This document shows positions 1 to 51,897 of a stretch of 64,000 nt of DNA, piece after piece. The stretch covers positions 19,267,862 to 19,331,861 of the forward strand of contig OY997650.1 in NCBI GenBank assembly GCA_963921795.1. The letters run 5' to 3'. The position numbers were made by a program, and so were the translations under genes. The DNA comes from Nannobrachium achirus. Lineage: Eukaryota; Chordata; Actinopteri; Myctophiformes; Myctophidae. The notes below the pieces were generated by a model. It searched no databases and was not told the DNA's origin. It worked only from the letters and a program-made list of their open reading frames with translations. Positions within the stretch are counted from its first letter, which is position 1; every line of letters begins with the position of its first letter.

Positions 1-2629
1 GATGACGGTCTCATATAGGCTACCTGTTCATATTCTTTTTATGTTTTAAGCTATTTAAGTGATTAGTATGTTTTTTATGGGACAAGATGATGAAGTTGTC
101 AACCTTTCAAACCATTCCTTTTAAGGCTAATAGTTTGGATTGTAGCCCACTGCAGATTAATATAACAGTTTTATCTTTTGACAATCAACAGTTTCCTTAA
201 GGACCACAGGAATAGTTGTTCTGTTATGGGCGGTGTTTTGTTAATACCAGTGATATTACAACTGAGTTTTATCCGTTGTTTATCAGCCGTTGTTTATATT
301 TATCAGCCAAAATCAATGCCTAACCGGGGAGCATTAATGTGCTCTGCAAAAAGATCCCCAGTAGTATCTGAGAAGACTTAACTTTCAAGGAGGATGTAAC
401 AAATGCATGTCTACCAGTCTAATATCTTGTTCCAGAATCAGAAACTGAAGATTACAGTCCAGACATATGTTTCAGTGATATGTAATTCTCAACAGCTGTT
501 GTCCAGCGGACTGAAGCCAGCCCACTCTCTCTCCAAGTCTGCAAAATGAATTTGAAGATAATCATCACCGCACAGACTGTGCTGAGCTGGCTGAATGTCA
601 TCAAAAGGGGGGACACTGAGAATACACACTCTCTTACAGCAAACCTAAAGCCATTAAGAAATCTAATCAACAACTACTACTAAAGGTAGGCAAAGATTTT
701 AAATATTATAACTAAAGATTAGTTAAATAGATGAATAATATAGGAGACGTGCCCTACCTTCCTCCATCTGTGACAGTAAAAATTAAATTATCAACTTAAA
801 GATAGGGCAATAGATACGGGATAACTTCAGATATTTACATATACTACATAATGTCTAGACAACGATATCAGTTGCTTTTCATATAACCTGACCGCCGGCA
901 CTGACCCAACTTGTGGAAAAGTATAATAACATAAAGCATTTTCCCCACAAAAGTTGGAGAAACACTTGAAGGGCATACGTGCAATGTTCAGACACAATTC
1001 AGCTATTCACTAGACTAGACAGCTGTGGGTAAAGTTTAAAAGTCACAGAAACAACTCTCAACAAATAGGCCTACAGGATCTTTCTGGGAACTATAGTTAA
1101 AAATAGGAAATTGTTTCTAGAGCAAGGTTATTTTGACCAAAATAGCATCTAGACTCATTACAAACTATTATAAAAGAACCGCAGTGTGGAAATTTGTGTC
1201 CCCACTCCCCACATCAGAAAAGTGTTTTGTATGGTGTCATATACAGCTCACTGCCACTTAAATAAAAACAATGCACAAAGTATTACAGTATTTTATGGTC
1301 GGAAGTCAGTGCAGTCTGTAGACATTAAATAAATGCTCCCACTCCAACACATTTTGGAGAAAACACCTGATTTGTATTCATAAAAAGTTCTATTTATTTC
1401 AAAGTTCTTCTGTATTTGACTAACAGATTGTTTCTATGGGTAAACGCATGCTGAAAACACATGAATAATACATTTCTTACAATAATTGCTCAGCATCAAT
1501 GGCAGACACTGGTGAGTAGAACAAAGGTGAAGATTTCCACTCATTTAGGTTCCAGAGACCCCCCCCCCTCCCTCCCTCAAAAAAGAAAAAAACTAGCATA
1601 AAGAAACACAAAATGAGTTAGTTAGGCCAGTCCCGCTTTATAGGATTATAGTGTAGAGTCAAATCCACAAGAATCCAATGTGGCTTTTGGATAATCCCGT
1701 CAGAACAGGCAACTGTGCAACGCTACTACAGAACACCCAAGCCTGTTACCATTGATGAGACCCTATTGAAGGAAAGGATGAGATTTGACAGAAGAACAGA
1801 GGAGAAGCGCAATCCCTATTAAACAAAACGTCACATTCATTTCTACATGACTAAACAACTCTGTCAACAGCATGTGACATACGGTAGCACCACATGCCTT
1901 GTTTAAACAAAAAAGGATTATGAACTATTTACACAGATACAAAACTAGGTTGTTGTATTTTTTTCTTTTTTTGCCATATTGGAAAAATATATATTAATGA
2001 GCATACAGGCTACTCTTCCAGAGAACCTGAACCCATTAGGAAAGAAATATCACATTTAAAAACCCAATATATGTAAGCCTGTGCCTGTTCAAGTGGCCAT
2101 GAATATGCATACAAAAGTTCTATGCATGTCCGTGAGGTGAGGCTGAGGTAAAATGAAGCTCTGCTCCCAGTTACAGTCATCAATAATTGATGAGGGATAT
2201 TTTTCATATCTTCCTCCATCAATATGTTAATTAACCTAAAAGTCTGATTGTGACATTTTCCCTGATTAATGTAAAGCATGTGCTGCTTTGCTAAGTTAGT
2301 AGAGTGATAGGACCTGCACAGCTAGATCCATTTTTACATTCTAAGAAAGTAAAAATAGATTCGTATGGACCCTTGCAGGTTCCATTTTTACTCTGTCAGA
2401 GTTCAATGAATGGCTAGGATTGTACTGTGTGGTAGCTGGTATGTTTGAAATATGAATTGTTGGCATATTAATATTATGTTATTGTGAGTGATTCAGAACC
2501 ATAACTGCATGGACCATCCTGAACGGTAAAATCCTCAGTGATCATTTATCCATTTGTAACAATGAGAGTGTAAATGTTAAATTGACACTGATGACTTTAC
2601 TGCGTGTGACAGACACATTACAGTGCATA
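1..2629. other. pcbp4 3' UTR and downstream flank, no gene seen
   Basis: AT-rich sequence with no coding exon I can support. The part next to 2630 should be pcbp4 3' UTR. The rest is intergenic, with short homopolymers (for example C/T-rich at 1559-1577). Confidence 0.5.
1393..1398 (-). promoter_or_regulatory. Candidate polyadenylation signal of pcbp4
   Basis: AATAAA on the minus strand (tttatt on plus), about 1.2 kb past the pcbp4 stop codon. It is a canonical hexamer in the right orientation, but transcript data are not available and other sites could be used. Confidence 0.35.
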
Positions 2630-12737
<10,108 letters not shown>

Positions 12738-14362: not shown

Positions 14363-17176
14363 TGTGTGTGAGAACAACAGCGCCCCTCCCTTAACATGTG
14401 TGGTCAGAAAAGGTACTGCAGGCTTGAGGCTACATACAGACACGCACACACACACGCACGCATACACACACGGCCACGTATAGGAGACGGTGTGACCACC
14501 GCTCAAAAATGGGTTGATACAAGCATGGGCAATGGGATTAAGGTTCAAAATCAGATATTATTATAATGAGAATCATTATCTGTGCAATGCAGGTATCTTA
14601 AATAAATTGCTTTAGTGAGCAAATTGTGAGTGGCGATTTAACTATTCTTAAAATAATGTAGGCCTACTAGGCCTAAATGGGCCTAAAATAAGACCCTGGA
14701 TTTCTAGGTTTACTGAAAAACCATCTCCTTGTACAGTACCATTGTCAATATCCCCAGATAGAAGTAAACATTAATCTACACAATAATGCTGTGTTATTTT
14801 TCTTATTTATGTGTGTAATTGTATAGTTACAGTGTGCATCAAACAAAAACGGCAACATCACCGTCTAATCCTATAGGCCAGGATTTATTTTAGCTAACGC
14901 TAACACCCTTTTGACCCATTTCTGTCACCTCTAACATGTCAGCGTGCACTGAAGACTTTAGAACAAAACACTACAAACCACAAAGAACACATGATATTAA
15001 GACAATGTAACTCAACTCCCAACACACCGACTCTGTCAGAAACGTGCAGCAAATAAATAGAGCATTAATTGTTTATCAACACGTGTTTTTAGTTTTCTTT
15101 TTTTCAATTTTAGTTTTTTTGCGGGTTATATGAAAGTGGATTATTGTTAGGGCTTTTTTGTTCTAATAAATCTAATCACTTTGTAAAACAAACAATCAAA
15201 GAAATGCTGAATCATTTGAAGATAACAGGGTGGGATTACATCCTCCATAATGCCACTAATTCGTAAAACAAAGGACTTAAGATACTGTAGCAGCCGGTAT
15301 GATTTCCACAAATGCAATGTTAGGTATATCCTTTTTTAATATCACATACGGTATAGTATTCTATGATTGATATTGCTCCCTGGATAGCTACATAAATGTT
15401 ATATCTGTTAAATCTGCAATTCATAAATCTGTGTGAATAAAAATGTTAATACAATATAACTAACACAATTGCAGGGTTGGAGGTGAATTCTCTGCATGCT
15501 CATATCCTGTGGTCGGGTACGTCCACTACTGATTGACAAATTTGAAGAGAAATATCTCGCCTTCCGAACTAGTAAACTCTGTTATGGCTCAACAGTAGCA
15601 ATGTCAGCAGACAGTGGGACAAAGTTACCGATTGCTGCTTTAAGTTTTATTTCTGAGCTTGCACATATCAAGCTACACATGGGGCCTACCAGGCCATTGC
15701 ATTCCATCCAAAAGACAGAAATCGTAAAGATAAAGGATTTGACTAATGGGGCAAATAATCTGTCTCAAATCAAATTTACAGTAGTCAATGTATTTGACAC
15801 AAAAAACACCTGTCTTTAACCTAGGGCCTATTTGTGTAAAACATTTCTGAGAGCAATGATCAACAGATAAATCTACAGAAAAGCAAAGACTTTACAGCTT
15901 ACTTCACAAAGATTACATTGTCTAGATAAAAGCCAATTACTGTAAAATAATTCTGAATTTTAAGCATGTAAAGTAACTAAAACTCAATCCTATTCCAGCC
16001 TGCAGTATTGTTGCAAGAAGAAATCCTAGCAGTTAAGAGCCTGTGTGTGACTGAAGGGCCTGTAATGCGACAACAATGAGTTGTATAAAGTACTGACCTT
16101 CTATTTGATTATGCTGGTTGCGCTTCTTTACTCGTGGTATCTTCTGAATGAATGCCCGTTCAGTTTGGAGGTTGTGTATATGTTTGTCCCCTTTGTTGTC
16201 GGCTATTGGGCAGAGAGTGGACAGATGGCTCCCTGTGCCCTCAGACCGGCTGGAGTGAGGCTGGCTTTGCTATTAGTCCCTCAGCTTAGCCCAAGATAAG
16301 CCCCTACGCAGGGCAAGGGAACCCACATCTCTTGCCTAATTCTCCCTGTCAGTGTTATTGGCGTTCCTCTGAAGACAGACCCGCTTGCTGAAGAGGCCTG
16401 AGGGTAAGTCAACGTGGATCTTCGGCGGGACGCTGTCCAAATCAGAGAGGGCATGCTACAGTCGAAGACAGATATGGCCAAACGGGGAGGTCTACCCTTC
16501 TGCAGAAACCGAAAACAAATGCAGGGACATTGCTTGGTGGGGGGGAAAAAATAGAAGCGTTGTTAACTGATGTGGCCTTGTGACTAATGTCTGTGCTTGA
16601 CTGCTGCACTGATCATTAGATTCTCAGAGAGCGCTTCCTGCTTCCACGGGGCCAGATTTTCTCTAAAAATAAATCCCTCTGTATGAAGTCGGTGCTTTGT
16701 ACAAGACAGTCGTGGCACATAAACACCCGACTAATTGAGGAGCAGGGAGGGCAATGACATATTTGAGGTGTTTAGTTTTGTTAAGTACAATGTCTTCATG
16801 GGGTGCTTCGAACCCCGTTCCCTCCACCAGCCCTTCCCCCACCCCACACCAAGCCCTTGTGTCCCAGTAATGAGGCCATAGTGGATACAATACAACCCTT
16901 CTGCAGAGAAAAGGGCATTCAGTTGAGCTTCAAAATCGCAAAGGAAATGAATCAGCGAAGCATAAGTGGCATATTTAATTACTTTTCACTGCATTGCACG
17001 AAGACAATGATGGCTGCTGTGAGCCTCATGGCAGACTCCCTCAGACTAAGTGCTCTGGCCTTCCTTCCTACATCTAATACAACAGACTGCAGACATTAGG
17101 CTCATGTCGAAACTGTAACTACTGAGAGTTACACTTATAATATATATACAATTGTGAAGTGGGTGGGTGATGTGAT
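12769..17176. other. Gene-poor region upstream of pcbp4
   Basis: No coding exon I can defend. It contains a (TG)n tract at 14318-14370 and AT-rich unique sequence. It may hold 5' non-coding exons and the promoter of pcbp4, because the first coding exon begins at an apparent 3' splice site, but none can be identified from sequence alone. Confidence 0.4.
14318..14370 (+). repeat. (TG)n microsatellite
   Basis: About 25 TG units preceded by G/C homopolymers. Confidence 0.9.
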
Positions 17177-18657
17177 CCTTTTTTAGATTTTCTTGAGTCT
17201 CACCCCCCAATTATGTTCCAATGTACAAAAAACTGCTTTGGTTAGAATTTGGTTGAATTTCAAGCATATTTAGAGGTAGCTCAATCAAGTCAAAGATTGT
17301 ACATTTTATTGGTCAAAATCAAAATCAATTGCACTGCAGGCACATTTAAGTTATACATTACACATTATTCTTATACTAAGCACAGAAATTATATTTTTTA
17401 AGCTTACAAATCTAAACACAAATCTAATTACATGTTTGTCATATGTCAAACCAGAATTAATGTATTGTAGGAAATAGCAAAGCAAAGAATGACAAATTGC
17501 TATTTTTCATTTTACGTGCACAATGACATGTCTCTATTGCACACTCTTCAATCATACTCACAACACACAACAAGCACACAGCCCCACTTCCTTGTTTACC
17601 CCCAAAACCCCTGAAAGTCACTGCAGTATAGTAATTCAGTAGTTACTGATCAATTAAAGTTTGTTTACGGCTATCGGGATACTTCGTTGCTGGAATATTC
17701 ATCAATAAATGCTGAGGTGTCTAAAGCTGCTTCTCAAAAGTTTTCCAATCACTTATGGTATTTGGCCCCAGAGATCGTTTGCATTGTTTGACAGTCAAGT
17801 GAGCGCACAAACGAAGAGGCTGATGGTGAGAGCCATGAAAGATGGCAATGAAGATGATGAACAGGGGCATATGAAGAGAATTACTGTTGACCTTGGAACA
17901 ATTGCAAGGAAGAACATGGAAGATTTTGTGTCTCCCAAATCCAAGGTGCTTTTCAAAATGATAGATCTCCCAGATGACTTCCTTGACGTTGATCCCAATG
18001 AGTGGGAGCCCAGGGTGGACTACCAAGAAGCTCTGGCTGTAGTGAAGGCGATGAATGTTGTCAATGATCATGCAGAGTGTGGGGTTGCCCTAATACAAGA
18101 ATATTGTGGTCTCATTACTAAAGATGAGTCCCAACTCCAATTCCTGCTGCAAATTGTGCAGAACCATCGGCACAAGTATCCCGATAGCCGTAAACAAACT
18201 TTAATTGATCAGTAACTACTGAATTACTATACTGCAGTGACTTTCAGGGATTTTGGGGGTAAACAAGGAAGTGGGGCTGTTTGCTTGTTGAGTGTTGTGA
18301 GTATGATTGAAGAGTGTGTGCACGTTATATGAAAAATAGCAATTTGTCATTCTTTGCTTTGCTATTTCCTACAATACATTAATTCTGGTTTGACATATGA
18401 CAAACATGTAATTAGATTTGTGTTTAGATTTGTAAGCTTAAAAAATATAATTTCTGTGCTTAGTATAAGAATAATGTGTAATGTATAACTTAAATGTGCC
18501 TGCAGTGCAATTCGATTTTGACCAATAAAATGTACAATCTTTGACTTGATTGAGCTACCTCTAAATATGCTTGAAATTCAACCAAATTTTAACCAAAGCA
18601 GTTTGTTGTACATTGGAACATAATTGGGGGGTGAGACTCAAGAAAATCTAAAAAAGG
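17177..18657. mobile_element. Foldback (long inverted repeat) element carrying an ORF
   Basis: The left arm 17177-17684 (508 bp) and right arm 18174-18657 (484 bp) are inverted copies differing by a few substitutions and small indels: a 6-bp AAAATC duplication near 17320 and about 20 bp near 17520. The outer termini read CCTTTTTTAGATTTTC and its complement. The flanks differ (tgatgtgat against taatttaag), so no target duplication is visible. The central ~490 bp is not inverted and holds most of the ORF at 17709-18215. A foldback or composite element derived from a DNA transposon is the simplest reading. The family is unknown to me. Confidence 0.8.
17709..18215 (+). CDS. 168-codon ORF inside the foldback element, likely transposon-protein C-terminal fragment
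   Basis: Uninterrupted ORF from ATG at 17709 to TAA at 18213-18215. The stop and roughly the last 13 codons lie inside the right inverted arm. The product is acidic in the middle (MKDGNEDDEQGHMKR). It then contains a block DFVSPKSKVLFKMIDLP, followed by NVVNDHAECGVALIQEY and a KYPDSRKQTLI tail. From memory, 'VVNDxAERGvxLiqxf ... rxKfPdxxK' is a C-terminal signature of repeat-associated ORFs in fish and invertebrates. Here the usual R of AERG is C. I cannot name the transposon superfamily. No intron signal or host promoter is evident. It is probably a truncated transposase-type protein, and whether it is expressed is unknown. Confidence 0.5.
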   Translation: MLRCLKLLLKSFPITYGIWPQRSFALFDSQVSAQTKRLMVRAMKDGNEDDEQGHMKRITVDLGTIARKNMEDFVSPKSKVLFKMIDLPDDFLDVDPNEWEPRVDYQEALAVVKAMNVVNDHAECGVALIQEYCGLITKDESQLQFLLQIVQNHRHKYPDSRKQTLIDQ

Positions 18658-18905
18658 TAATTTAAGATCCACCCTAGGGGTGGGGTTGGGTGTGGGTTTT
18701 CTTACTTTTAAATGAATTATTACACAGACAGTACTATAAGTGCACCTTCAACATTGCCAGTATTATTGTTAAAATGCAATATACCAGTTTTGCTTAACTG
18801 GCGTATTGCATTTTAGCAAGATAACATCATTACTCCATGTCACATAGCTAAATTATTTCTATTGAGTATTTTAGAAGTGTCACTTCTGGCATTGCGTGCA
18901 AAAGC

Positions 18906-22343: not shown

Positions 22344-24768
22344 ATGGATTTTCAACAACTGTGCACTTTCGAAAGTTTCCAGAAAGTTTGGAGTCATTAT
22401 GGCTACTCGAAAAAATTACAAGACGTGATTGAACAGGAATTCACAAGGATAAAAGGTAGTAAAACACAATGTGGAACGTGAGGCGAATGGTAGTTAGCTT
22501 AGGATTGTTGCACTGTCGCTGTGTGATCACTGACATGGCCGTGCTGTTTATTTTGAACAGGAATAACCTATCTGGACCATGCAGCTGCCACTCTCTATCC
22601 AGAGTCATTAGTGAGAGATTTCTGCCTGGACATTTCAAGCAACGTGTATGGTGAGAAAAGTAGGCATGGCCTAATCGAGACCCAATGGATATACTGTACC
22701 TCAAATTAATCTGTTATTACTATGCTATATTTCTGTCATGGCACAAAAAAGATAAATGGTTGAGTAGGCTATATTATGTGTTTTCCCCCATCCAGGTTAC
22801 TATACCGGTATATAGGCCTACTGTATTTTCATATTATTATCACATATAGGCTACTATTTATTTACGTGCAGCACATTATAACTTGATAATTGACTTACAT
22901 TAACATTATAATAACATGAACATATAAGTGATAATTGTTTTAACTTGAAACATTGTTAGAACAGGATATGGTAAAAAGTTATCAGGTTATAAATAACACA
23001 AAATGTTTCACTTTATAACAAGATAGGCCTATTATTAATGGTATTCTTACAACAAGATGAGTGTATGTCAAAATAACATGAAAATATCTTGTTATAACAT
23101 GAAAAACATCTCATTATAAGTTAACACAAACAACCCTTAATAAGATATTTTTGGATCTGATTTTCTTCCTGCCGTGGCAGTATTACTATAATTGTATAAT
23201 TTTAAAGGTTATTTATTTATAACTATGTATTTGACTGTTTTAAAACAACAATATTATTTTAGTAATATCATTCTGCAAGCTAAAAAACATTTGAGTGTGT
23301 TACTGTTGTAACTTGGTATTTCAAAACAGGCAACCCCCATAGCCATAACCCCAGCAGCAAACTGACACATGACACTGTGGAACATGTGAGATACAGGTAA
23401 AGCCAACTAGAGGCAAGCAGCCGTCGTTGTCTTTCCATTGTTACAGCTATTAATGGTTAAGTGAAATTATAGTTAGAGCGAGGAAACTTAAAAAGCTTCA
23501 ACATCTTTCAGGGTGTTGCAGCATTTCAACACCACCCCTGAGGAATACTCCGTCATTTTCATCCCAGGCTGTACAGCGGCTCTCAAATTAGTGGCCGAGA
23601 GCTTTCCCTGGAGACCGCGGACTGCGATTGAGGCTGGGAGTCTCTTCAGCTACACCACTGACAACCACACCTCAGTTGTTGGCATCCGAGGGCTGACGTC
23701 TGGCCAGGGAGTTGTTACCCTCCCGGTCCCACCGCAGGAAGTGGAGAGCAGGGCTAAGGATGAGCCTCTGGGTGAAGACAATGGTTGCCAGACGCCACAC
23801 CTGTTCTGTTACCCGGCTCAGAGCAATTTCTCTGGCAGAAAGTATCCCCTGAGCCATGTTGGAGGCATCCAGGCGAGACGCCTCTACCCGGCATGTGACC
23901 ACCAGGGCCGCTGGTTTGTGCTGCTCGACGCCGCCGCTCATGTCGCCGGCTCCCCTCTAGACCTCCAGAAGTGCCGTGCCGATTTTATTCCTATCTCCTT
24001 CTACAAGATGTTTGGTTTCCCCACAGGGCTAGGGGCCCTCCTCGTCCGTAACGACGCGGCGGCCTTGCTGAAGAAGACTTATTTTGGTGGGGGTTCAGCG
24101 GCGGCATACCTCGCCGGGGAAGATTATTATGTGCCTACAGCAAGCATTTCTGACAGGTGAAATATTATACAAGCACAGAGTAGAAACATCTGAAATCCTA
24201 AGGGAATTAAATCATTCAAAAGATGCCAGTGATAAGATCATAATTTATTCATTGCTCTTGTATGCTTTTGTAATATCACACTGTACGTCTTTTCCCTTGA
24301 TAAAGATTTGAGGACGGCACCATATCTTTCTTGGACATCATTGCTCTAAATCATGGGTTTGAAGCACTGAACAGGCTCACAGGTATTGTGATAATTGATG
24401 GTTTGAAATGGAACAAAGGAAAGCCATAATATTACTGCTGTCATAATAATCTGAATCAAGGATACACGTACGACAACCCTTCCTTTATCCCCCTTCTGCT
24501 TCAGGGGGCATGGCCAACATCCAGTTGCACACGTTTGGCTTAGCGCGCTACACATACATGCTGCTGTCATGTCTTTGCCATAGCAACGGGCAGCCAGTGG
24601 CTCAGATATACACTGAAGGCGAGTTTGAGAGTCCAAGCACACAGGGTGCGATCCTTAACTTCAATCTGATGGATTGTCATGGACAAGTGATTGGATACTC
24701 TCAGGTGCATACAGCGAATGGGCTTCATTTCTGTGTCAAAACAAAGTAATTACTCAATTCGTGTGCAC

Positions 24769-32211: not shown

Positions 32212-32245
<34 letters not shown>

Positions 32246-32355
32246 GAATTTATTAGAAGTTTGCAATAGAAAAAAGTACAGTTTCATGACAACAAATACA
32301 ACTGGTACAAGGTCAACTAAAAGGAGATCCTAGAAAGCCGAGGCTTATTTCCACA
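32212..32355 (-). repeat. LINE-like 3' end with (ATTG)n tail
   Basis: Minus-strand copy of a family also at 34135-34280, 36237-36342 and 44565-44695. The shared core includes AAGTTTGCAATAG(A/G)AAAA and GGTCAACTAAAAGGAGATC, and the tail is a tetranucleotide repeat. Confidence 0.6.
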
Positions 32356-33205
32356 GGAACCACACTTTAAGTATCTCATATAACATTGAAAGACAGACGG
32401 ATAGAACATAGTATACTTTATCTAGGATAATATCAGTTTCAAAAGCATAACATCAAATACAAAGGCAAAAATTGAATAGGCTATGGTTGGTTCTATTACT
32501 TTAAAAGTATTAGAGAAACGTGGAAAAAAAGCAAAATGTTGAAAGATGTTGCAGCACATCAACCTGCAGATAGACTGCTGTCTCAAAACTATGGTGCAAC
32601 AGAATCCACATAGGCCCTTGGCTATTGCCTCAGCCAAGGCAGCCAGGACTACACTAATGTTCCTATGCAAAGTGATGACTGTTAAGACAACCAGTGCATG
32701 TGCTGGCAAACGTCTGACATGGTCTACTCTATGGGGTGCAGCTGAGCTGGTGGAGGCCGTAGTGTACTGGCTGGCACCTTATCTGCCCCTCACCAGCACA
32801 TTAAGAAACCTGGGTAGATACAGAGAGACCCCCCCCCCCCCCCCCCCCACGTCAAATGACCCTCACGCTGGAACATCTGCCTCAGCATCCAGCAGGGAAC
32901 TCGCTGTGTCTCTCAGCATACCCAGGACTTACCAAGACATAAGAAACACATAGGCTACTTCCACAGATTACACCCAAAGAGAGTTTGAAAACATGACCAA
33001 TGACAAAAAAACTTCCATACTTGCTGGGAGAAGAATAAATACAGCAAATGTGCAAACACAGCAGACAGTTGTCACAACACAACTACTGTGACAAGAGTTA
33101 TCATATATATACAACCATACCACCTAACGACTTCACTGTGGGTTTTACTGCACTGTACAGGACCTCAGACATAGGCCTACTGTAGCCTACATATGAACGG
33201 AGCTG

Positions 33206-33389: not shown

Positions 33390-34134
33390 ACACATTGAAA
33401 AACTGCTTTTTGTACAGTTTAAATAGTTTGTACACAGTACACTATTTAAAAAGTAAACTGCTGCAATTTGTCACAGACAAAACCTTGAAAGATTGCTGAT
33501 ATTTCTTTCAAAAAGCTTTATACCAAGCTACCCTCACTATTTGAAACCTTTTCAACAGCCAGTTTTTCCGTTGTGACATATAGGCCTAGCTCTGTTTACA
33601 CAATGTTGTACCCCCATCAACTGTATCTGTTTGTTCTTAAATTGTTTTTCACTCTTGCTTTGGCTATGTAAACTTTTTTTTAATCATGCCAATAAAGCTT
33701 GTTGTGGAAATTGAACATTTCCTCAGTGAGAGAATGAAGAGTTAGACACTGATATGTCTATAACAGATTTATTCAATACAACAGATGACAATAATAATAA
33801 TATGACAATGATTCCTATGTAATATAAAAATAGAAAGAAGAGAGGAGAAAGGAAAAAGAGATGAAAGAAGGAAAGGTGGACAGGTTCCAGTTGTCTCGAA
33901 GGGCAACGGGAGTCTGACCCCGATCTGGATGTTGAGGCAGCTTAAATACAGATTCTGCAAGGATACATATTGTTAAGATAATTCTGAGGACTGACATTGC
34001 CCGTCTGACCAAAAGATGTGTATATACTGTTTGTTTAGACTTACTGTTTTCTTTTTTAGTTTTTCTTTACATATCTACTGCATAGTACTGTGTTCTATTT
34101 GTCTGTCATTCAATGTTATATGAGATACTTTAAT

Positions 34135-34280
34135 GGTTTCCAGTGGAAATAAGCTTAGTCTTTTCATGGATCTCCTTTTAGTAGACCTTGTACCAGTGAA
34201 CTGTACCGTCATGAAACTGTACCTTTTCCTATGCAAACTTCTAATAAAGTCTTCAATCAATCAATCAATCAATCAATCAA
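34135..34280 (+). repeat. LINE-like 3' end with (TCAA)n tail
   Basis: GGATCTCCTTTTAGTAGACC ... CCTATGCAAACTTCTAATAA, followed by TCAATCAATCAA. Plus-strand copy of the family at 32212-32355. Confidence 0.65.
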
Positions 34281-35511
34281 TTCTCTTAACACTTGAGTAT
34301 GGAAGGTCACTTCTGCCTGACTATGAAATGTGCTGCTCAATGCTCAGCCACTGAGAGCGGCGACACTACCCCCCTGACCAACCACTGCATGAACATGTGT
34401 TTCATTCTTATCGACTGAGAATGGAAGGCCCAATTCTCCTTGCGTTCATAACACCTTAACCTGTCGTCTTGCTGTCTGGGTCTGCCGCTTGCCTACAGGG
34501 GAATAGTTAGTGAACTTGACCTTGTATGAGCCTGCTGCTGCATAACTACGTGTACACAGTACACTGAGGCCTAAACTCATAAGACATATTATCATACTCA
34601 TTTACTTCCCTTGCTTACATATTACATTCATAACATCAGCATACAGTCATATGAATATTAAATATAAGTCTATAATCTATCTATCAATAATCGATAACTC
34701 AATAATCGATAGATCAATAGCCTGAAAGGGAATATAAATTGTATTTCCATTACAAAGCTGCTATGAATTGAAATGTTGACTTTGTGTTGGGTGCAGGAAT
34801 TAAAACCCCAGGCCAGGTGGGTTCTATGGTATTCTGGGGTGTGCCAATACGTTGAGGACTTACTGCATGCCTTAGGGTTGGTCAGCAGCAGGGTGTTGGT
34901 GTATTTCATTATTGTGTCGTTAATTGTGCCATTTTGCTGTTAATGGTAGGTGTATAGATGTTTGTGAGATTAATGTGTGGTATAGCCTATGCTATGCTGT
35001 TATAGATCCTGTTTTGTCATGCCATTAAATAAATAACTGCTGTGGGCCTATAGCTATATTGGCCTATGTGAGCTAGTGGAGCCACTTTTATTTGCAGTGC
35101 TACCTGCAATCAAACGATCAAGAAATTGCCATGTCTTTTCCTTGAGCAGTAAAAGTCAAATCGTTTTGGGATTAGTTTTGTATTTGTTTATTTCCCATTT
35201 CGTTCTTAAGGTCGCGTTATCAGTCACTAGACTCACTACAATATTTTTTGCCTACTAACAGTTAGGCTACCCCTAGGCCACCTTAACAAGCTTCGTTCCT
35301 CCCACTCTTTCCTCATTATCATTTCTCAGATCAAAGTTTGATCAAACTGTACTTTAACCTCTTGGAATGGTCGCGTTTATTTTTATGCTAGCCTGAAACC
35401 TTTATGTTTTACAACTAGTCGAACTTTCAAATTAATATTGCTTCCAGTTCCAGGCAGTTTATTTTCACGAAGACAGAGAAGAAGAAGTGGTTGCACGAAT
35501 AGACTGACAAA

Positions 35512-35729: not shown

Positions 35730-38700
35730 AATAGCTTTTTGGCATGAATGTAACAATTACAGTATTGCCAGCATCAAATGCAGTCCTTCTAGTCTTTCTC
35801 AAAGGAGTTGGCCATATAGCCAGTGGTGTAATTTAAGTAACTAAGTACATTTACTCAAGTACTGTACTTAAGTACAATTTTGTGGTATGTTTTACTTTAC
35901 TGGAGCATTTCCGGTTTTCAGTACTTTTACTTCTAATCCACTACATCTCAGAGGCAAATATTGTACTTTTACTCCACTACAATTATTTGAAAACTTTAGC
36001 TACTAGTTACTTTGCAGGTATAAAGTATAATATTATAAATCATACCGGTAGGCCACTTTAGCCCTATTTTATACCTAGGCTATTTGAAAATAGCAGATCT
36101 ACAACATGATGCGATGCATTGTGAGCTTGTAGATCTGCTATTTTCAAACATTTTGTACTTTTACTAAGTACTTTTTGATGCCAATACTTTTAGACTTTTA
36201 TATGAGATACACACATGTTATAAGCCAAAAAGCTTAAAAGGATCTCCTTTTAGTTGACCTTCTACCAGTGAACAACTGTAGCCTACTGTCATGAAACTGC
36301 ACCTTTTCCTATGCAAACTTCTAAGTCATCAATCAATCAATTCATGTAGGCTACATTTTGAATTCTAGACTTGTGTATTTCTACATTGCAGTATTGGTAC
36401 TTTTACTTAAAGGACATTGAGTACTTTTTCCACCGCTAAAAGGTCCTGGGTTCGATTCCCGCCGGGGACTCTGTGGGTGCTGGGGTGCTCGCCTCCGTGT
36501 CATCAGTGCCCATACCCTAGGTGGTGTTGGCAAAAGGGCCTTCTGTGTGGAGTTTGCATGTACTCCCCAGTCCCCGTGTCTCCTAGGGTAGGTAGGTACC
36601 CTCACAAAAAACATGCAGTAGACCTAATCCTGGTCTCTACTGCATCCCCCTGGCCAGCCGGGGGGCGCCTGATGAAGGGGAAAGGAACTGGTTGGAAATA
36701 ACGTGTTCCTTCCACGTGCTATGTCCAACCGGGGAAACTCCCCCTGTCAGGTGAAAAGAAGCGACTTGGACTCCTCATGCCTAAAAGGAAGCATGAAGTC
36801 AGTCCGTTGTCTCCCCAGGTTGGCAGAGGGAGTGTAGTGCCCATGATGGCATTAGATAATTGACACTGGGTGAAAAATGGGTTACAAAATCGTGGGATAA
36901 AGATTTAGAGAGGAAAAAAAAAAAAAACGTAACAAAAAATGCAAACAGAATCCTTCTCTCTGGTTTCAGATCCCCGTGGAGACGTTGGCTCAAAAGAGGC
37001 TTATTGGCATTCTGTGCCATTTTCACCATTGCAATACAGTACATGTTACCTGACTTAACACCGCGTGTTGTATATTCTTATGGAAGTGAGTTAATTTCCT
37101 GTCCACTTCATATCAACTCTATCTTAAAGTGATTTAAAAATAATGTCAAACATCCTCCTCCTCCTCCAGTAAGACTCCCATTCTTTGTTGACCTCAAGCA
37201 ACCTGCTGATCTCTTGCTTAATCACACTGTCAACATGTACCTTACACCAGAGGAAGGGATGTCTCTTGGTGTATGGTGAGTATAAACCTTACCTAATACT
37301 GTATTTTCTGTCTTAATCAGACTATCATAATGGTAGCAACTTAATGCATTTAGGCCTGTAGACATGGTCAAGATAATCTGCTGCATCATTATGGAGAAGA
37401 AGTTAAGAAAGGAGATTTATGTGACTTTGAACGTGGCGTGGTTATTTCAGAAACTGCTGATCCTCTGGGATTTTCAGAAGATTGCAAAGACTGGTGCTAA
37501 AAAGCAACTGGTTCGAGCTGACAGAAAGGCAACAGTAACGCAAATAAACACTTGTATTGTTACAAACGAGGTATGCAGGAGAGCATCTCTGAAGGCACAG
37601 CAGATCGACCACATCGGTACCATTCCTGTCAGCTGTGAATAGGGAAATGACACAGGGAAATGGATAATAGCAGTTTGGAAAAATGTGCCTGGTCTGATGC
37701 ATTTTCTGTAAACCCTACAGATGGTTGTGTGTTAAAGTCCCAGTAGATCAGCAGTTTCTGAAATACTTTGGCACCAACAACCATTCAATGTTCAAAGTTA
37801 CTTAAATCACCTTTCTTACCCATTCATTTGAACGGCACAGGCCTAAATGAACTGAGTTGCTGCCATATGATATGCCCGATTAGAAATTTGTGTTAACATG
37901 CAGCTGGAGGTGTGTCTAAAGGTTAAGTGGTCAATCTGTAAATGCGTGAGGAAGAACACTTTTTGGTGAATCAATTTGAACTTCTTGTGGGGCTGTTTTG
38001 TATTCTTCAAGGCATACTGTTCCTGAAAGTCAGTGGAAAGAGGCACAAGGGAAGGACCTGGCATGGTACCAGAATTCTTTGGGAAATGGAGCTCCAGTTG
38101 TCATATATCTTCATGGCAATGGAGGAACAAGGTATGAAGAATAATACTATATGGTGGCTGACATATAAAAAATAAAGAAAGAAAAGAAAAATCTCAGATA
38201 GTAAAGGTACATTCTATTATTATTATAATTTGTTATTATCGTCATAGGTCTTCTTAATGACTCGTGCCTTCTATTCAAACAGGGCAGCTTCTCATCGTGT
38301 TGGAGTGGCAAATGTGAGTGACAATGACATATGATATGTAGGTCTTGAATGTCTGAAGATAAAATAGATCTTAGTAGACATTGTTGTAATAATAAATTAA
38401 GCATCAAAATGTGTCAACAGCTACTGAGTGCACTTGGTTACCACGCTTTGGTTCTGGACTACAGAGGTAGGTAACTGAGATTGTTATAACATGCAAAAGT
38501 ACTGCTGCACCTGTGAAGCACAATGTTTTATGGAGCAGAGATCAGTCTAAAATTTCCTCTGACTGACTGCCACCTTGTGGTCAGTGCGTATTGTTCATGT
38601 TAAACTTGAAATCTTCCAGGATTTGCAGATTCCACTGGGAAGCCTACTGAAACTGGCATGACCACTGATGCCCTCTATCTGTACCAGTGGGTTAAAGCAC

Positions 38701-40880: not shown

Positions 40881-40928
40881 GCAGTGTTATCTGACCCCTG
40901 GTGGACACTTTTGTACATTGTAAGTACA

Positions 40929-41213
40929 TCTATACTATAATTTTGCGAATGTCTCAGTGAGTGTCTGAGTGAGTGTCTGAGTGAGTGTCTGAGTGTCTGT
41001 CACAGCGTTTCTCCTCAGTGGCTGGAGCAATTGATCTGAAATCGCATCACCATAAGCATATGAACACACCTGACATAACTGTGAAGCCCGTTTGTCACTT
41101 TCACAAATCGTATGCTGTATATTAGCATTTTTATGGTGTATCTACTATCTATTCTGCATCTAGCATGAGGCACATCTATTCTGCATCTAGCTTGAGGCAA
41201 AGTGTTTAACCAG

Positions 41214-41271
<58 letters not shown>

Positions 41272-41490
41272 GCAGGCGGGTGTGTGTGCAGGCGGGTGGG
41301 CTGGGGGGGGGGGACAGTATCTCTGTAGCCATTAAACGAAACGGGTTTCTTACATTGATGCTCCTACATCATGCAAGCACCAGTTAAAGTTACTTTCCAT
41401 CCCTCATATACTGTGTGCACAGTGCACATCCCATAACCCACACACTGCACATCATTTTGGAGCTCATATCTTTGAACGGGTAAGGGCTAG
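40929..41490 (+). mobile_element. Helitron-like non-autonomous element, copy 1
   Basis: Starts TCTATACTATAATTTTGCG directly after an A and ends GGGTAAGGGCTAG directly before a T. That fits the Helitron pattern (5' TC, 3' CTAG, insertion between A and T, no target duplication). It contains TGAGTGTCTGAG tandem units near the 5' end and an internal (GT)n tract at 41217-41269. A subterminal hairpin is not clear. A second copy in reverse orientation lies at 51584-52174. Confidence 0.72.
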
Positions 41491-41786
41491 TTCAATGTAA
41501 TTACATGAGTATGTGTGCTTCATGTCTGGTAATAAAAGAAAGAGAGAAAAAATAAATAAACAGCTGAAAACCTTCATGTTCTGTTGAACATGAAATATGT
41601 TTAATTGTACAGTGTTTCTCCTATTTGTCCCCACTGGACACACATTGACATTTTTGAGCGGTGGTCACACCGTCTCCATAGTGTGACCGTGTGTATCCGT
41701 CCGTGTGTGTCTGTCTGTATGTAGCCTGAGCCAGGCCTGCAATACAGTTGAGTGACCAGAGAGGTCCTGTTGCGCAGCCTTCAAAT

Positions 41787-43641: not shown

Positions 43642-46600
43642 ATGAGGTCGACCCGGTGGAAGGTTGCGGTGGCGGCCGCGACTCTTCTGGCGATAGCGGG
43701 CTCGTTGTTACCTGTCGACGCCGACGAACACGAACACACGGTAAGACGAGGAGCAGCGCCTTTTGAGGCCGATTGAGAACGGGGAAGCCTTGGCCGTGTG
43801 TTGCTGCTGCTGCTGATAATGGACGGTTGTCTTGTGCCCGTTGTGGGAGTGGGACGTGTTGTTGGGATGAGTTGTAAGAAAAAAAAGGAGCTGCAACACG
43901 GCGACAGTGACCTGGTGACATGATGTCACCTTTATCCGGCTTTGAATAATGGCGTTTAGCTGGTGCTAGTTTATAAACATTGACTTAGAAATTAGCAGAC
44001 TGGCTACTACACTACATACGGCCCTACTACTGTACGCTACAGCGTCTGGCTAACGTTAGCTCGCTTGTGCTAGCCCGAAACTGAACTGTGTATCCTTTTA
44101 AACAACCGCAGGCGAGGTGCTGCTGTTGCGTCTCACTGCATTCACTAACTGCAGAATGTCATCGATATGAACTACTTTATTAGCTGTTTTATGCCGTAGT
44201 GTAGCCAAAAGGAACGAGTTATTGTTCAGCAATGTGCGCTGTTGTCCGGCTCTGATGCCGGGTGTTCAGGGCCGCTTACTGGTTGTTCCTGGTCTACTCT
44301 GTACTGTACAGTCAATGTGATCTGGTCTTGTCTTTCATCTCCTCTTTAATGGGAGCAACGCCTCACCCAGTACAACCAATGCAGCCAGATAGATTGAAGC
44401 AATGTCGAATTGTTGACCAACAACGGACTTGTCAACTTCTGATGCGTGACGCGCATTGTGGTGGTGGAGGGGTTTGGATGGATGTGTACTGTACAGTACT
44501 TCTGTACTGTCTCACTTGTCCCGTTTAGTCTGAGTGCACTGCAAATGATAAATAAGTGCACTAATTGATTTGTTGATTTAATGCTTTATTAGAAGTTTGC
44601 ATAGGAAAAGGTACAGGACAGTACAATTCAGTGATACAATGTCAACTAAAAGGAATAAGAAGACCACAAGAAAGCTGTTAGGCTTGTTTGAATTGGGGTC
44701 CCTTTGAACTCAATTCATAAAATGTTCCACGTGCATGCATTATTTTAATGTATAGTTGACTGACTCGCATTAACATCCCGTTAAGCTCTTATTGGAACTG
44801 TGTTGTAAACTAGCTGGCGACTGTAGATTGTGGCTGTGATGATCTGGTTGTCAATATGTATGTAGTAGAACTAGAACCCAGGCAGGAAGACTTGCAAAAC
44901 AGGCGCAGCAATGCTTGAACTTTACCACCGTGATTTCCGCTTCCTTTGCAGTACGTAGACAAAGAGGAGGTGGTGTTATGGATGAATACCGTGGGGCCTT
45001 ACCACAACCGACAGGAGACGTACAAGTATTTCTCTTTGCCCTTCTGTGTGGGCAGCAAGAAGACCATCAGTCACTACCATGAAACTCTCGGCGAGGCGCT
45101 GCAGGGGGTGGAGTTGGAATTCAGTGGCCTAGACATCAAGTTCAAAGGTATTATTAAACTTGACACATTAACTCATTAGATTGAGTTGATCAGTTTTGAG
45201 CAACTGGGAGAATTCAGTTCAGTCAGTGTTGATTATTCATTATGGATTGCAGTTCTAAGCTAATATACAAGTTTCTCACTTTGGCATTTGAATGAACTAA
45301 TAGTTGCTGTTATGTTATTTTGTCCCTTGCAGATGAAGTGATGCAAACAACATACTGTGAAATTGAGCTTGACAAAGCCAAACGGGATGCTTTTGTCTAT
45401 GCTATAAAGAACCATTACTGGTACCAAATGTACATCGACGACCTACCTATCTGGGGTGAGTGATGCTCAGTATTTCCACCAGGGATATTTTTTATTTCTT
45501 GATGATTTTGATCTTACAGAGACAGTCGTGTTTCCCCAAAACATATTCATATAAAAGTATGGATCCTAAAATATTGGTCCTGCAGTATTATCATACTTTG
45601 TTTAGGGGGGATTAGTAGTAACACTGGAAAATATTCAGGAACTGATAAATGTTATCATTGTCAACTCAGTTGTCGTGGAATTCTCGATCAATCAATCGAT
45701 TGACAGTTCAGCCAAGCTGCACAGGGCTCAGACCATACATAGTTAGCTGATACAAGGACAAGCTGAACCATAACAAGATGGGCTGTACCAAAACAATAGC
45801 CATCAGGCCTAGTGGAGACATCTAAGCTCTTACAATATCATAATGTATTATATAAGAACTATAAGTGATGGTAAAATATAAAATATAAGCAACCATAATA
45901 ACAATATAGTATAATGAATAATTCTTCTGCACTGAGCTCAATGACGAGACATACTACAGTATGTTGTAATTCATGCATTGCAATAGTATGGCTGAGAAAG
46001 TATCAGCATGTGTCTTCTCTCTGCAGGTGATTACAAAGAGTTTATGACTCATTATCTGTTGGACAGGCCATTTGAATTAATGCTAGTGAGGATTTAGCCA
46101 GTGGAATTGACATGGAATGACTCCATTACCGTTTGGAAGACTAGTACATTACTGTAGTTGACCACTACTAATGATGATGTCACCATGGATTGGACTATTA
46201 ATTTTTTGTATCCTGGAGGGCTGTTTGTTATCTGAAAAGGAAACATTGTAAGCTAGTTATTATACAATACGCTTTTAGTGTGGTACCTAACAGGCTTCTT
46301 GGCAACCGGTACAGTTGGACCACTCCTAGAGCTGTGTGAGCATAGCAGCTGTGTAACCTGAGGATATTGTGGACAATGGGTGGGGCCTGAGCCCTAAGAC
46401 ACACTGTACAATTGAATATGTCATCGTAGTTCATTAAGTATAATATAGACTTTGACCTCAGATCCGGTTCCTTGGGTAAATTCCAGCGCTTTACCAAATA
46501 CCTTTGAGTCTGTACTCATCCAGTCTGAGAGGGAGGGAAACTGAAAGCATATTCAGTTTGACATAAACAACTGTATCTGTGTTATTGCATGTTTATCCCA

Positions 46601-49600: not shown

Positions 49601-51841
49601 CAAAAAGATTCTCAAGGTGTATTTTTGGAAAGTTTTTATTATATTTTATAATGTCAGGTTTTATTTTATTGTATTAAAAAAGCTTTGGGGCTGAGCAGGT
49701 GAAACCAACAGTATAATTGTGCAGTGCGTTTTGTGGCTGAGGGAGTGAAACTATTGTGCAGTCAGTGAGTTTTGGGGCTGACCCTGCGCACTCACACAAA
49801 AAGCGACCAGCAGTCATTAATTTCCCATGGCTGCACTGTGTGACTTGGAGAAACAAGACATTTGACGACAATGTTCCAGCCACAATTACAAATTTGAAAA
49901 CAATTTAATGTAAATGAGCAGTGACTAGATTTGAGTGATCCAAACTAGAGCACTGGCCAATCAGATGGCAGACGTGTTTGTAAAGTTTATTTTATTTATT
50001 CATACAGTGAACTGGAGCAGAATATAGATCGATGCAAGCTCGTGATATGGACTGTCTCTGATAGCTCTCGATTTGATTTACAGAATTTTAAACTGTAGCT
50101 GTTGTAAATGTGAAATGAAACGATATTGATTAAATACAAGGTCCATCACTGTAAAAAGTTATGAGAAGTTGTTTTTGGTTGTAGTGAATTATAGATTGTT
50201 TACAGAAAAACTGCCATTGCACATTCAGAATCACCAGAGACCTGGAGCTCACAGTGGAGTAGATCACAATTGTATTTTTTAATGTTACAGTTAGATTGGG
50301 TAACTCAGTTAGATCGTGGTAAGAGCACTCGTTTTGTCGTTCACCACACACCCTTAACACCACCTGGATCAATTCACTTTGATAGTCTCTTATCAGCGCA
50401 CCTGTGTAATTCTGCGTATTCACCATGAGATGGCGACAACAGCCATTCACTTGTGTAGTCGCTGACGTCACTTGTTTGCGACCCCTCTTTCTTTGTTTAT
50501 CTACTAGCCTAGCTCAGCTGTGTTTAGCCATTAGCTTACTATGCCTAACTCTAACCCTAACCCTAACCTTAACCTCAGTAAAACTATGCCTAACCCTAAC
50601 CTCCGTGGGGTGAGGCGCTATCATTCCTGCCGACGCTACGTTGTCGTTGTTGTGGATCAAAGCGACCGCTTGTTCCGCGCCGCACGACGAGCGCTCCGGT
50701 TCTCGATCGAACTGTTTCTCGATCTAGCGGTAACATATATACACTATATATATATATATATATAGCCTGCTTTGACAGCGTGGTATAGTAAAATAATAAC
50801 ACACCTCCATACTGCATGCTTAATGGGAAATTTCAGTTCTGTTTCTTTTCTTGCCTAAAATGTTTTCAGAAACAAAATGTGGTTATTCAAAATAAGTTGA
50901 ATATAGATTGCTTCCACACAACCTAATCTACACTCCACTTACGCAAAAATAAAGCTGTAGTGTTGGCAAGGAATCCATGCCCTTGTGTTGCTTTTGGTGT
51001 GAGTGCTGTTTTCTAGGCTTTGGCAACAGCGACTTGGTGACCCACAATAATATTTATTTTGGTATGAATGCAGGATGAGAGTGAAATGCAGGGTGCAATG
51101 GGGTCTGGGGCTGGTGTTAGAGAGTGTGATTTATGGGGGTTTAATTTTACTGATACAGTATATATTCTTTCTCTGTAGGAGAGGATCCATGCTCAGTACC
51201 GCCATTTTTGTGTATGCTGCAACTTCGCCTGTTAACGGCTACTTTGGAGGTAGCTTGTACGCGAAACAAGGAGGTACGGTTATGGCCTTAATGCATTCAC
51301 TAAATCTCTTAGGCAGGACGTTGTTGTAAAATCCATTTGCCTATACTCTCTTAGTAAAAATGTGGTTGTCTTTCCTTTTGATAACGCAGGCAGAAGATGG
51401 ATTAAGCAAATGTTCATTGGGGCCTTCCTGATCCCGGCCATGGTGTGTGGGACTGCCTTCTTCATCAACTTCATTGCTATCTACTACCATGCCTCAAGAG
51501 CCATCCCATTCGGCACTATGGTAAGTATTACACAGCATACTTTAACTATGTGTTCTGAAAAGCCATCTGTCAGTTTATCTAAACTAGCCCTTACCCGTTC
51601 AAAGATATGAGCTCCAAAATGATGTGCAGTGTGTGGGTTATGGGATGTGCACTGTGCATACAGTATATGAGGGATGGAAAGTAACTTTAACTGGTGCTTG
51701 CATGATAATATGTAGGAGCATCAATGTAAGAAATACCCGTTTCGTTTAATGGCTACCCCCCCCCCCCCCCCCCCCCCCAGCCCGCCCTCCCACCCGCCCA
51801 CCCGCCTGCGCACACACCCGCCTGCGCACACACCCGCCTGC

Positions 51842-51897
<56 letters not shown>

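What the first reader, a model, noticed from the sequence alone, without database searches (positions are those of the whole stretch)
17177..18657. 1.5-kb foldback element with ~0.5-kb inverted arms around an intact ORF
Long inverted arms, a non-inverted ~490-bp core and an undamaged 168-codon ORF whose stop lies inside one arm do not fit a simple MITE. The inner arm edge duplicates the 3' end of the coding sequence in inverted form, as if the 3' part of a transposon had been inverted and joined upstream. The transcript would form a very long hairpin, a possible siRNA source, unless transcription is limited to the ORF. The arms differ by only a few changes, so the element is fairly young or kept alike by conversion.
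Basis: partly seen in the sequence, partly recalled or inferred. Interest (0 to 1): 0.72.

Follow-up and report, generated by a model that had tools for sequence, protein, structure and literature searches.

The report
Palindromic transposon made of two 3'-ends
This is a worn copy of a many-copy jumping-gene family in which two copies of one end of a DNA transposon, each carrying the tail of its transposase gene, are joined back to back; it shows how a transposon can turn into a self-folding, defective and very successful version of itself.

Summary
The inverted arms are real: 17177-17684 against 18174-18657, 508/484 nt, 8 mismatches, gaps of 5 and 19 nt. It is mobile DNA. The 1.66-Gb genome holds 528 matches to the family's terminal tip against 0 for the control. 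Of 40 loci examined, 34 have both tips and 30 of those have identical 8-bp target duplications. Mapped on the one near-full-length relative found (L049, 3,165 bp, 129-bp inverted ends), 30 of 31 complete elements are two 3' ends joined in inverted orientation, each holding C-terminal codons of an unclassified transposase gene. That relative's 5' region was found once. The window copy descends from a ~2.1-kb palindrome by a ~0.6-kb central deletion found nowhere else and has a damaged left tip. Its ORF is not intact: a 5-nt deletion puts the first ~23 residues out of frame. Substitution patterns suggest that palindromes arose at least twice from a transposase gene still under selection. Best reading: non-autonomous foldback derivative mobilised in trans. 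Hairpin-RNA silencing is possible but untested. New variant of a known kind.

The parts
17177..17684 (-). Left arm: inverted copy of the transposon's 3' end (3' UTR plus last transposase codons); maps to parent positions 3146-2664
   Evidence: closest to the short arm of L009 (98.6%)
17685..18173 (+). Non-inverted core: C-terminal transposase coding sequence, continuous with the right arm
18174..18657 (+). Right arm as paired with the left arm: last transposase codons, stop codon, 3' UTR
18658..18676 (+). True right terminal tip (complement of the family tip TAGGGTGGATCTTAAATTA), unpaired here because the left tip is damaged
   Evidence: sequence against the family tip; alignment to L009 ends at 18676
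17168..17176 (+). Damaged left tip (about 10 nt shorter than, and unlike, the family tip)
   Evidence: limits tentative
17160..17167 (.). Possible left target-site duplication (7 of 8 bases equal to 18677-18684); G/T-rich, so weak
   Evidence: read by eye; other copies have 8-bp TSDs
18677..18684 (.). Possible right target-site duplication
   Evidence: read by eye
17684..18215 (+). Degenerate transposase C-terminal coding fragment, broken by one frameshift
   Evidence: 17787-18212 aligns with the L049 C-terminal ORF and L051
17709..18215 (+). The reported 168-codon ORF; first ~23 residues out of frame
17777..17785 (+). Site of the 5-nt deletion that shifts the frame
17684..17685 (.). Junction of the ~618-bp central deletion relative to the L009-type palindrome; one match in the genome
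18524..18529 (+). AATAAA in the 3' UTR, mirrored at 17305-17310 on the minus strand

Best explanation
It is an inactive copy of a non-autonomous foldback family of a cut-and-paste DNA transposon. Shown: the copies read are palindromes in which two copies of the 3' end of one transposon (C-terminal transposase codons, 3' UTR, terminal inverted repeat) face outward on either side of a short centre, and they carry 8-bp target duplications, so they moved as units. The window copy later lost ~618 bp from its centre, took a 5-nt frameshift deletion and lost its left tip. Inferred: a fold-back or hairpin-primed repair event at an end inside the transposase gene created an inverted dimer of the 3' end. 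The dimer has a transposon end on both sides, so transposase supplied by a rare complete element moved and multiplied it. This probably happened at least twice, in lineages A and B. The truncated reading frame is a passenger. The confidence below is for the non-autonomous foldback reading; I put the two-origins step alone at about 0.7.
For: Many copies: 308 candidates, the 40 best scored; 528 tip matches against 0 control. Mobility: 30 of 34 tip-paired loci have exact 8-bp TSDs, consensus near RTGYRCAY, though 4 are ATATATAT and one GTGTGTGT inside simple repeats. Architecture: 30 of 31 elements with a TSD match of at least 7/8 have a longest inverted self-match of 217 nt or more, and the palindromic copies map to parent ~1.94-3.165 kb in both orientations. 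Parent: L049 4742-7906, 129-bp TIR at 98%, ORFs of 364 and 379 aa. Parent 5' region found once: N-terminal ORF (1 family match plus 2 distant ones, 19 of 19 candidates scored) and 5' noncoding (1 match, 1 of 1 candidates). Recurrent origin: A-B consensus dN 0.037, dS 0.151; distinct within-subfamily variants 23 synonymous / 94 nonsynonymous against 10/10 between subfamilies, Fisher p = 0.008. Fold-back signature: mini-hairpins with 0-7 nt loops at the centres of four classes, at different parental points.
Against: The window copy's own left tip and TSD are damaged (7 of 8 at best). The tree cannot be rooted, so it does not by itself show two origins, and the parent lies between A and B. Different centres could be later trimming of one palindrome, and 18 of 31 elements show no mini-hairpin at the centre (no chance control was run for the hairpins). 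L049 is itself frame-broken and has no visible TSD, so no active transposase source of this family is shown. The search tool skips very common words, so 'found once' is a search result, not proof of rarity.
Confidence: 0.86

Rival explanations
1. A local inverted duplication at this locus (break-induced fold-back) that never transposed.
For: The window copy has no perfect TSD, and its central junction is unique in the genome search.
Against: Hundreds of tip matches elsewhere and 30 loci with exact TSDs; the window's left arm and its core plus right arm match an L009-type element at 98.6% and 98.9%.
Confidence: 0.02
2. A mobile silencer: read-through transcripts of the palindromes form long hairpin RNA, give small RNAs against the transposase gene and shut the parent down, as proposed for Mu killer of maize.
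For: Arms are inverted copies of transposase coding sequence plus TIR; AATAAA lies in the distal arm in either direction (window copy); the only near-full-length copy found is broken. The Mu killer abstract describes the same layout.
Against: No RNA data. The palindromes lack the parent's 5' end and probably its promoter. Loss of full-length copies is the usual fate of DNA transposons even without silencing (general knowledge).
Confidence: 0.12
3. The truncated C-terminal transposase reading frame is retained because it makes a repressor protein.
For: 23 of 28 B arms and 21 of 33 A arms are open over 117 codons.
Against: Distinct variants within subfamilies are mostly nonsynonymous (23 syn / 94 nonsyn), as expected without selection; B frames are open because the copies are young (B arms of different copies differ by a median of 0.6%).
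Confidence: 0.04
4. A single palindromic founder gave all copies, and the different centres are later deletions in an unstable palindrome.
For: The innermost parental points reached by the arms lie mostly within 1.94-2.35 kb; palindrome centres are deletion-prone (general knowledge), and the window shows such a deletion.
Against: Purifying selection on A-B divergence implies that the lineages split while coding for a working transposase.
Confidence: 0.25

Closest known systems
Galileo 2TIR / long-TIR copies (P superfamily, Drosophila mojavensis; PMC3573991, abstract and sections 7 and 10 read)
   Same: Non-autonomous copies of 1.7-2.2 kb average length that are almost all inverted repeat; TIRs extended by recruiting internal sequence in inverted orientation; outnumber near-complete copies; several subfamilies.
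   Different: Galileo recruits F1/F2 sequence next to the TIR, and its longest-TIR copies lack the transposase ORF; here the arms contain transposase coding sequence and 30 of 31 complete elements read are 3'-3' forms. The transposase here has no Pfam match.
Mu killer of maize (PMC3440606, abstract and outline seen)
   Same: Partial inverted duplication of a transposase gene with two copies of one terminal repeat region.
   Different: Mu killer is described as a dominant silencing locus; here there are hundreds of dispersed tip matches and 30 loci with exact TSDs, and silencing is untested.
hAT superfamily (features recalled)
   Same: 8-bp TSD with T at position 2 and A at position 7 favoured; tip TAGGG; CRHH, RWMAK and AER motifs resemble the order of hAT catalytic motifs.
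   Different: No hAT model of Pfam matches at E up to 10.
MITEs
   Same: Non-autonomous, high-copy, TIR and TSD.
   Different: About 2.1 kb, mostly palindrome, with transposase coding sequence in the arms.

Membership tests
Foldback elements (structural class) | Long inverted repeats make up most of the element | tested here: met
   30 of 31 complete elements have a longest inverted self-match of 217 nt or more, 24 of 31 between 831 and 1067 nt
Foldback elements (structural class) | Arms built of internal tandem repeats, as in Drosophila FB (recalled) | tested here: not met
   one search shows only two 24-nt two-copy families (71% alike) touching the element; one search lists no tandem array at 17177-18676
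Cut-and-paste DNA transposon | Terminal inverted repeats and fixed-length target-site duplications | tested here: met
   30 of 34 tip-paired loci with exact 8-bp TSD; for the window copy itself only 7 of 8, by eye
hAT superfamily | 8-bp TSD of form nTnnnnAn (recalled) | tested here: met
   T at position 2 in 37 of 60, A at position 7 in 37 of 60 (both strands counted, so one figure; 5 of the 30 TSDs are simple repeats that favour T/A there)
hAT superfamily | Recognisable hAT transposase domain | tested here: not met
   no Pfam family at E<=10 for the N- and C-terminal ORFs of L049; only a sub-threshold DUF4820 for the 807-aa relative
P superfamily / Galileo | P-type transposase with THAP domain | tested here: not met
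   no such Pfam match
MITE | Short (usually under 600 bp, as stated in PMC3573991 section 10) and without coding sequence | tested here: not met
   31 complete elements of 1,076-2,833 bp with transposase codons
Mu killer-like silencer | Inverted duplication of transposase gene with terminal repeats | tested here: met
Mu killer-like silencer | Hairpin RNA, small RNAs and loss of transposase expression | not testable with these tools
   no RNA data available

The most novel reading that the evidence does not exclude
A DNA transposon that repeatedly folds back its own 3' half into mobile inverted dimers which spread as transposable hairpin loci, supply silencing RNA against the transposase gene, and so drive the complete element to near-extinction while they multiply: a mobile, self-made counterpart of Mu killer in an animal.
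Probability: 0.12. Interest if true: 0.78.

Novelty: new variant of a known kind. Interest (0 to 1): 0.47.

Why it matters
Where foldback elements come from is still argued from scattered examples. Here one genome holds a near-full parent, two subfamilies of derivatives, several central junctions (some with hairpin signatures), and a substitution test separating evolution in the transposase gene from evolution in the palindromes. That makes recurrent formation of double-3'-ended elements testable. The transposase also belongs to a group without a Pfam model, with an uninterrupted 807-codon relative in the same genome.

Tried and rejected
Rejected: intact gene (frameshift); local duplication (dispersed TSD-flanked copies); general homogenising conversion of the arms; simple MITE; membership of hAT or P (no Pfam match).

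Led nowhere: PDB sequence searches of the ORFs gave nothing credible. tblastn against phages found nothing. A viral-contig scan matched 14 stretches by pattern, none a relative. The AlphaFold model of window 17787-18212 alone reached mean pLDDT 41.5, so no fold search was made. Rfam and tRNA scans of the window found nothing. Nine paper searches (one search was for the motif DTTASNTG) listed no paper that I recognised as describing this family; papers beyond PMC3573991 and PMC3440606 were seen only as search listings.

Not obtained: genome-wide counts of the individual junction classes and of the unrearranged centre (genome search did not complete; DNA queries on the parent's middle also did not complete). 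An earlier count said 26 of 31 pairs lie at 1.98-2.17 kb; recounted it is 25 of 31. Scripts stopped with errors; one search gave nothing, and one search gave only consensus distances, which I do not rely on.

Full report
OBSERVATION. The inverted arms are present at 17177-17684 and 18174-18657, with 8 mismatches in 484 aligned pairs and gaps of 5 and 19 nt in which the left arm is longer. The 168-codon frame 17709-18215 exists. Upstream of its ATG, the frame starting at 17684 reads SLLEYSSINAEVSKAASQKFSNHLWYLAPEIV. After a 5-nt deletion at about 17777-17785, seen by comparison with L009, it continues into the C-terminal part of the reported ORF. The first ~23 residues of the ORF are therefore out of frame, and the coding sequence runs up to the arm junction. 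The ORF is a damaged C-terminal fragment, not an intact gene.

MOBILE FAMILY. The window lies in a genome of 1.66 Gb in 564 contigs. A DNA search with the element gave 308 candidate places, of which the 40 best were scored. I fetched 40 loci, L009-L048, from that list, including the window's own; two of them (L015, L020) contain runs of N. With the tip TAGGGTGGATCTTAAAT (up to 4 mismatches), 34 of 40 loci have both ends; 30 of the 34 are flanked by identical 8-bp duplications, one by 7 of 8 (L031), and three by 5, 2 and 0 of 8 (L023, L046, L014). Four of the 30 are ATATATAT and one is GTGTGTGT in simple repeats, so they are weak evidence individually. The symmetrised target consensus is close to RTGYRCAY. 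Genome-wide, a 33-base tip pattern matches 528 times (262 forward, 266 reverse) against 0 for the reversed control. The listing stopped at 100 places, all exact matches on contigs C1-C5. Among these 100, 31 convergent pairs occur, 25 of them 1,981-2,168 bp long; 38 tips were unpaired, perhaps because their partners are mutated and so not listed. I had read 5 of these 31 pairs in full.

PARENT. L041/L049 contains the C-terminal region attached to a longer frame. L049 has inverted ends 4743-4871 / 7777-7905, 129 nt, 98%, enclosing 3,165 bp with ORFs of 364 aa (5252-6343) and 379 aa (6307-7443) in different frames. It is frame-broken and I saw no matching TSD. Its N-terminal ORF finds itself plus two distant relatives at 25-26% (19 of 19 candidates scored). 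One relative, L051, has an uninterrupted 807-codon frame that aligns with the window fragment, including an invariant NVVND.AE.GV block. The 5' noncoding part of L049 (4875-5251) finds only itself, 1 of 1 candidates. The tool warns that no match does not prove rarity.

ARCHITECTURE. I mapped the 31 elements with a TSD match of at least 7/8, plus the window, onto L049. The palindromic copies consist of two copies of the parent's 3' part (up to ~1.94-3.165 kb) in opposite orientation, joined at centres that differ between classes. 30 of 31 have a longest inverted self-match of 217 nt or more; the exception, L038, is a 1,076-bp copy with a 40-bp inverted end. At the meeting point of the arms, 12 of 31 elements have a mini-hairpin with an 11-21 nt stem and a 0-7 nt loop: seven L009-type copies (L011 with a 7-nt loop, the others 5), three L028-type copies, L026 and L040; L036 has a variant. 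The other 18 show none there, and no chance control was run. The window element maps as parent 3146-2664 followed by 2169-3165. Against L009 its left arm is 98.6% and its core plus right arm 98.9% identical, with 618 bp of the L009 centre missing. A 30-base pattern over that junction (up to 2 mismatches) occurs once in the genome, here. The window's right tip is complete to 18676 but the left tip is not; a 7-of-8 duplication (17160-17167 / 18677-18684) is possible but lies in G/T-rich sequence.

ORIGIN. The arms fall into subfamily A (37 arms, which includes the window) and a younger subfamily B (31 arms, among them the arm of the parent-type copy L041). Between-copy arm divergence is a median of 2.9% in A and 0.6% in B, and within-copy 2.6% and 0.4%. 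The arms of one copy are mostly not each other's nearest relatives: 3 of 32 in A, 3 of 24 in B. In the tree of 68 arms several A groups contain same-position arms of different copies, whereas the two arms of L035 and of L037 (both B) pair within the copy. So most copies multiplied as units from masters whose arms already differed. For the coding test I used 33 A and 28 B arms of the 68, leaving out L039, L041 and L043-L047. Consensus A against consensus B over 117 codons: dN 0.037, dS 0.151. Pooled arm-against-consensus rates give nonsynonymous/synonymous 0.87 in A and 2.58 in B, the latter from only 3 synonymous and 29 nonsynonymous changes. Distinct variants inside the subfamilies are 22 synonymous / 71 nonsynonymous in A and 1/23 in B. 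Against 10/10 between subfamilies, Fisher p is 0.027 (A only) or 0.008 (A plus B); B against the parent is 6/5, p = 0.017. The simplest reading is that A and B diverged while the sequence encoded a working transposase and each later produced palindromes. The tree alone cannot decide this, because the parent attaches between A and B and there is no outgroup.

MECHANISM. Shown: inverted dimers of the 3' end, TSDs, many copies, and one broken near-full copy found in this assembly. Inferred: a DNA end inside the transposase gene folded back on itself (mini-hairpin centres) or repair switched template, copying the 3' half in inverted orientation out to the terminus. Two 3' termini then served as a transposable unit for transposase made elsewhere. 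The PMC3573991 authors propose a related route for Galileo, repair of one TIR using the other as template with the tract running into internal sequence (sections 7 and 10 read). Mu killer is described as a partial inverted duplication of a transposase gene with two copies of one terminal region, proposed to make a hairpin RNA by read-through (abstract). The same layout here makes silencing RNA conceivable, and AATAAA in each arm of the window copy would end a read-through transcript inside the far arm, but there is no RNA evidence.

CLASSIFICATION. No Pfam family matches the transposase pieces at E up to 10; the 807-aa relative has only a sub-threshold DUF4820 hit. The 8-bp TSD with T at position 2 and A at position 7, the TAGGG tip and the order of CRHH, RWMAK and AER motifs recall hAT, but the hAT features are recalled and membership is not claimed. 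The host was not identified.

VERDICT. A real and well-explained mobile element: a new family and variant of foldback/long-TIR derivatives, with unusually clear evidence for its origin. It is not a categorically new system.

Noticed in passing
L051:1414-3834 (+); L052:180-1502 and 1390-2388 (-): A related transposase family in the same genome; L051 has an uninterrupted 807-codon frame, no accepted Pfam domain, 25-31% identical to the parent's parts.
   Followed up: partly
window 40928-41492 and 51582-52175: A second inverted repeat pair, 87% identical over 606 nt, 10 kb apart, next to CA repeats.
   Followed up: no
window 32216-32413 / 34086-34281, 34168-34265 / 36240-36341, 34173-34269 / 44564-44654: Dispersed short repeats about 82-85% alike in both orientations.
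   Followed up: no
L012 (element 12-694) and L019 (element 12-677): Two different insertions of 683 and 666 bp, both at the same TTAA inside the terminal tip of palindromic copies, starting TTAACTC and ending TGAG before TTAA: look like nested TTAA-specific elements.
   Followed up: partly
L036 spacer: About 0.7 kb inserted in the palindrome centre, ending in ATT repeats; looks like a LINE 3' end by eye.
   Followed up: no
window 23492-24157 (+): Exon with aminotransferase class V domain (PF00266, E 2.9e-17), resembling molybdenum cofactor sulfurase by eye.
   Followed up: partly
L016 and L018 against L009, L010, L011 and L013, centre: The loop of the central mini-hairpin appears flipped between copies, as if the arms had recombined (by eye).
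   Followed up: no
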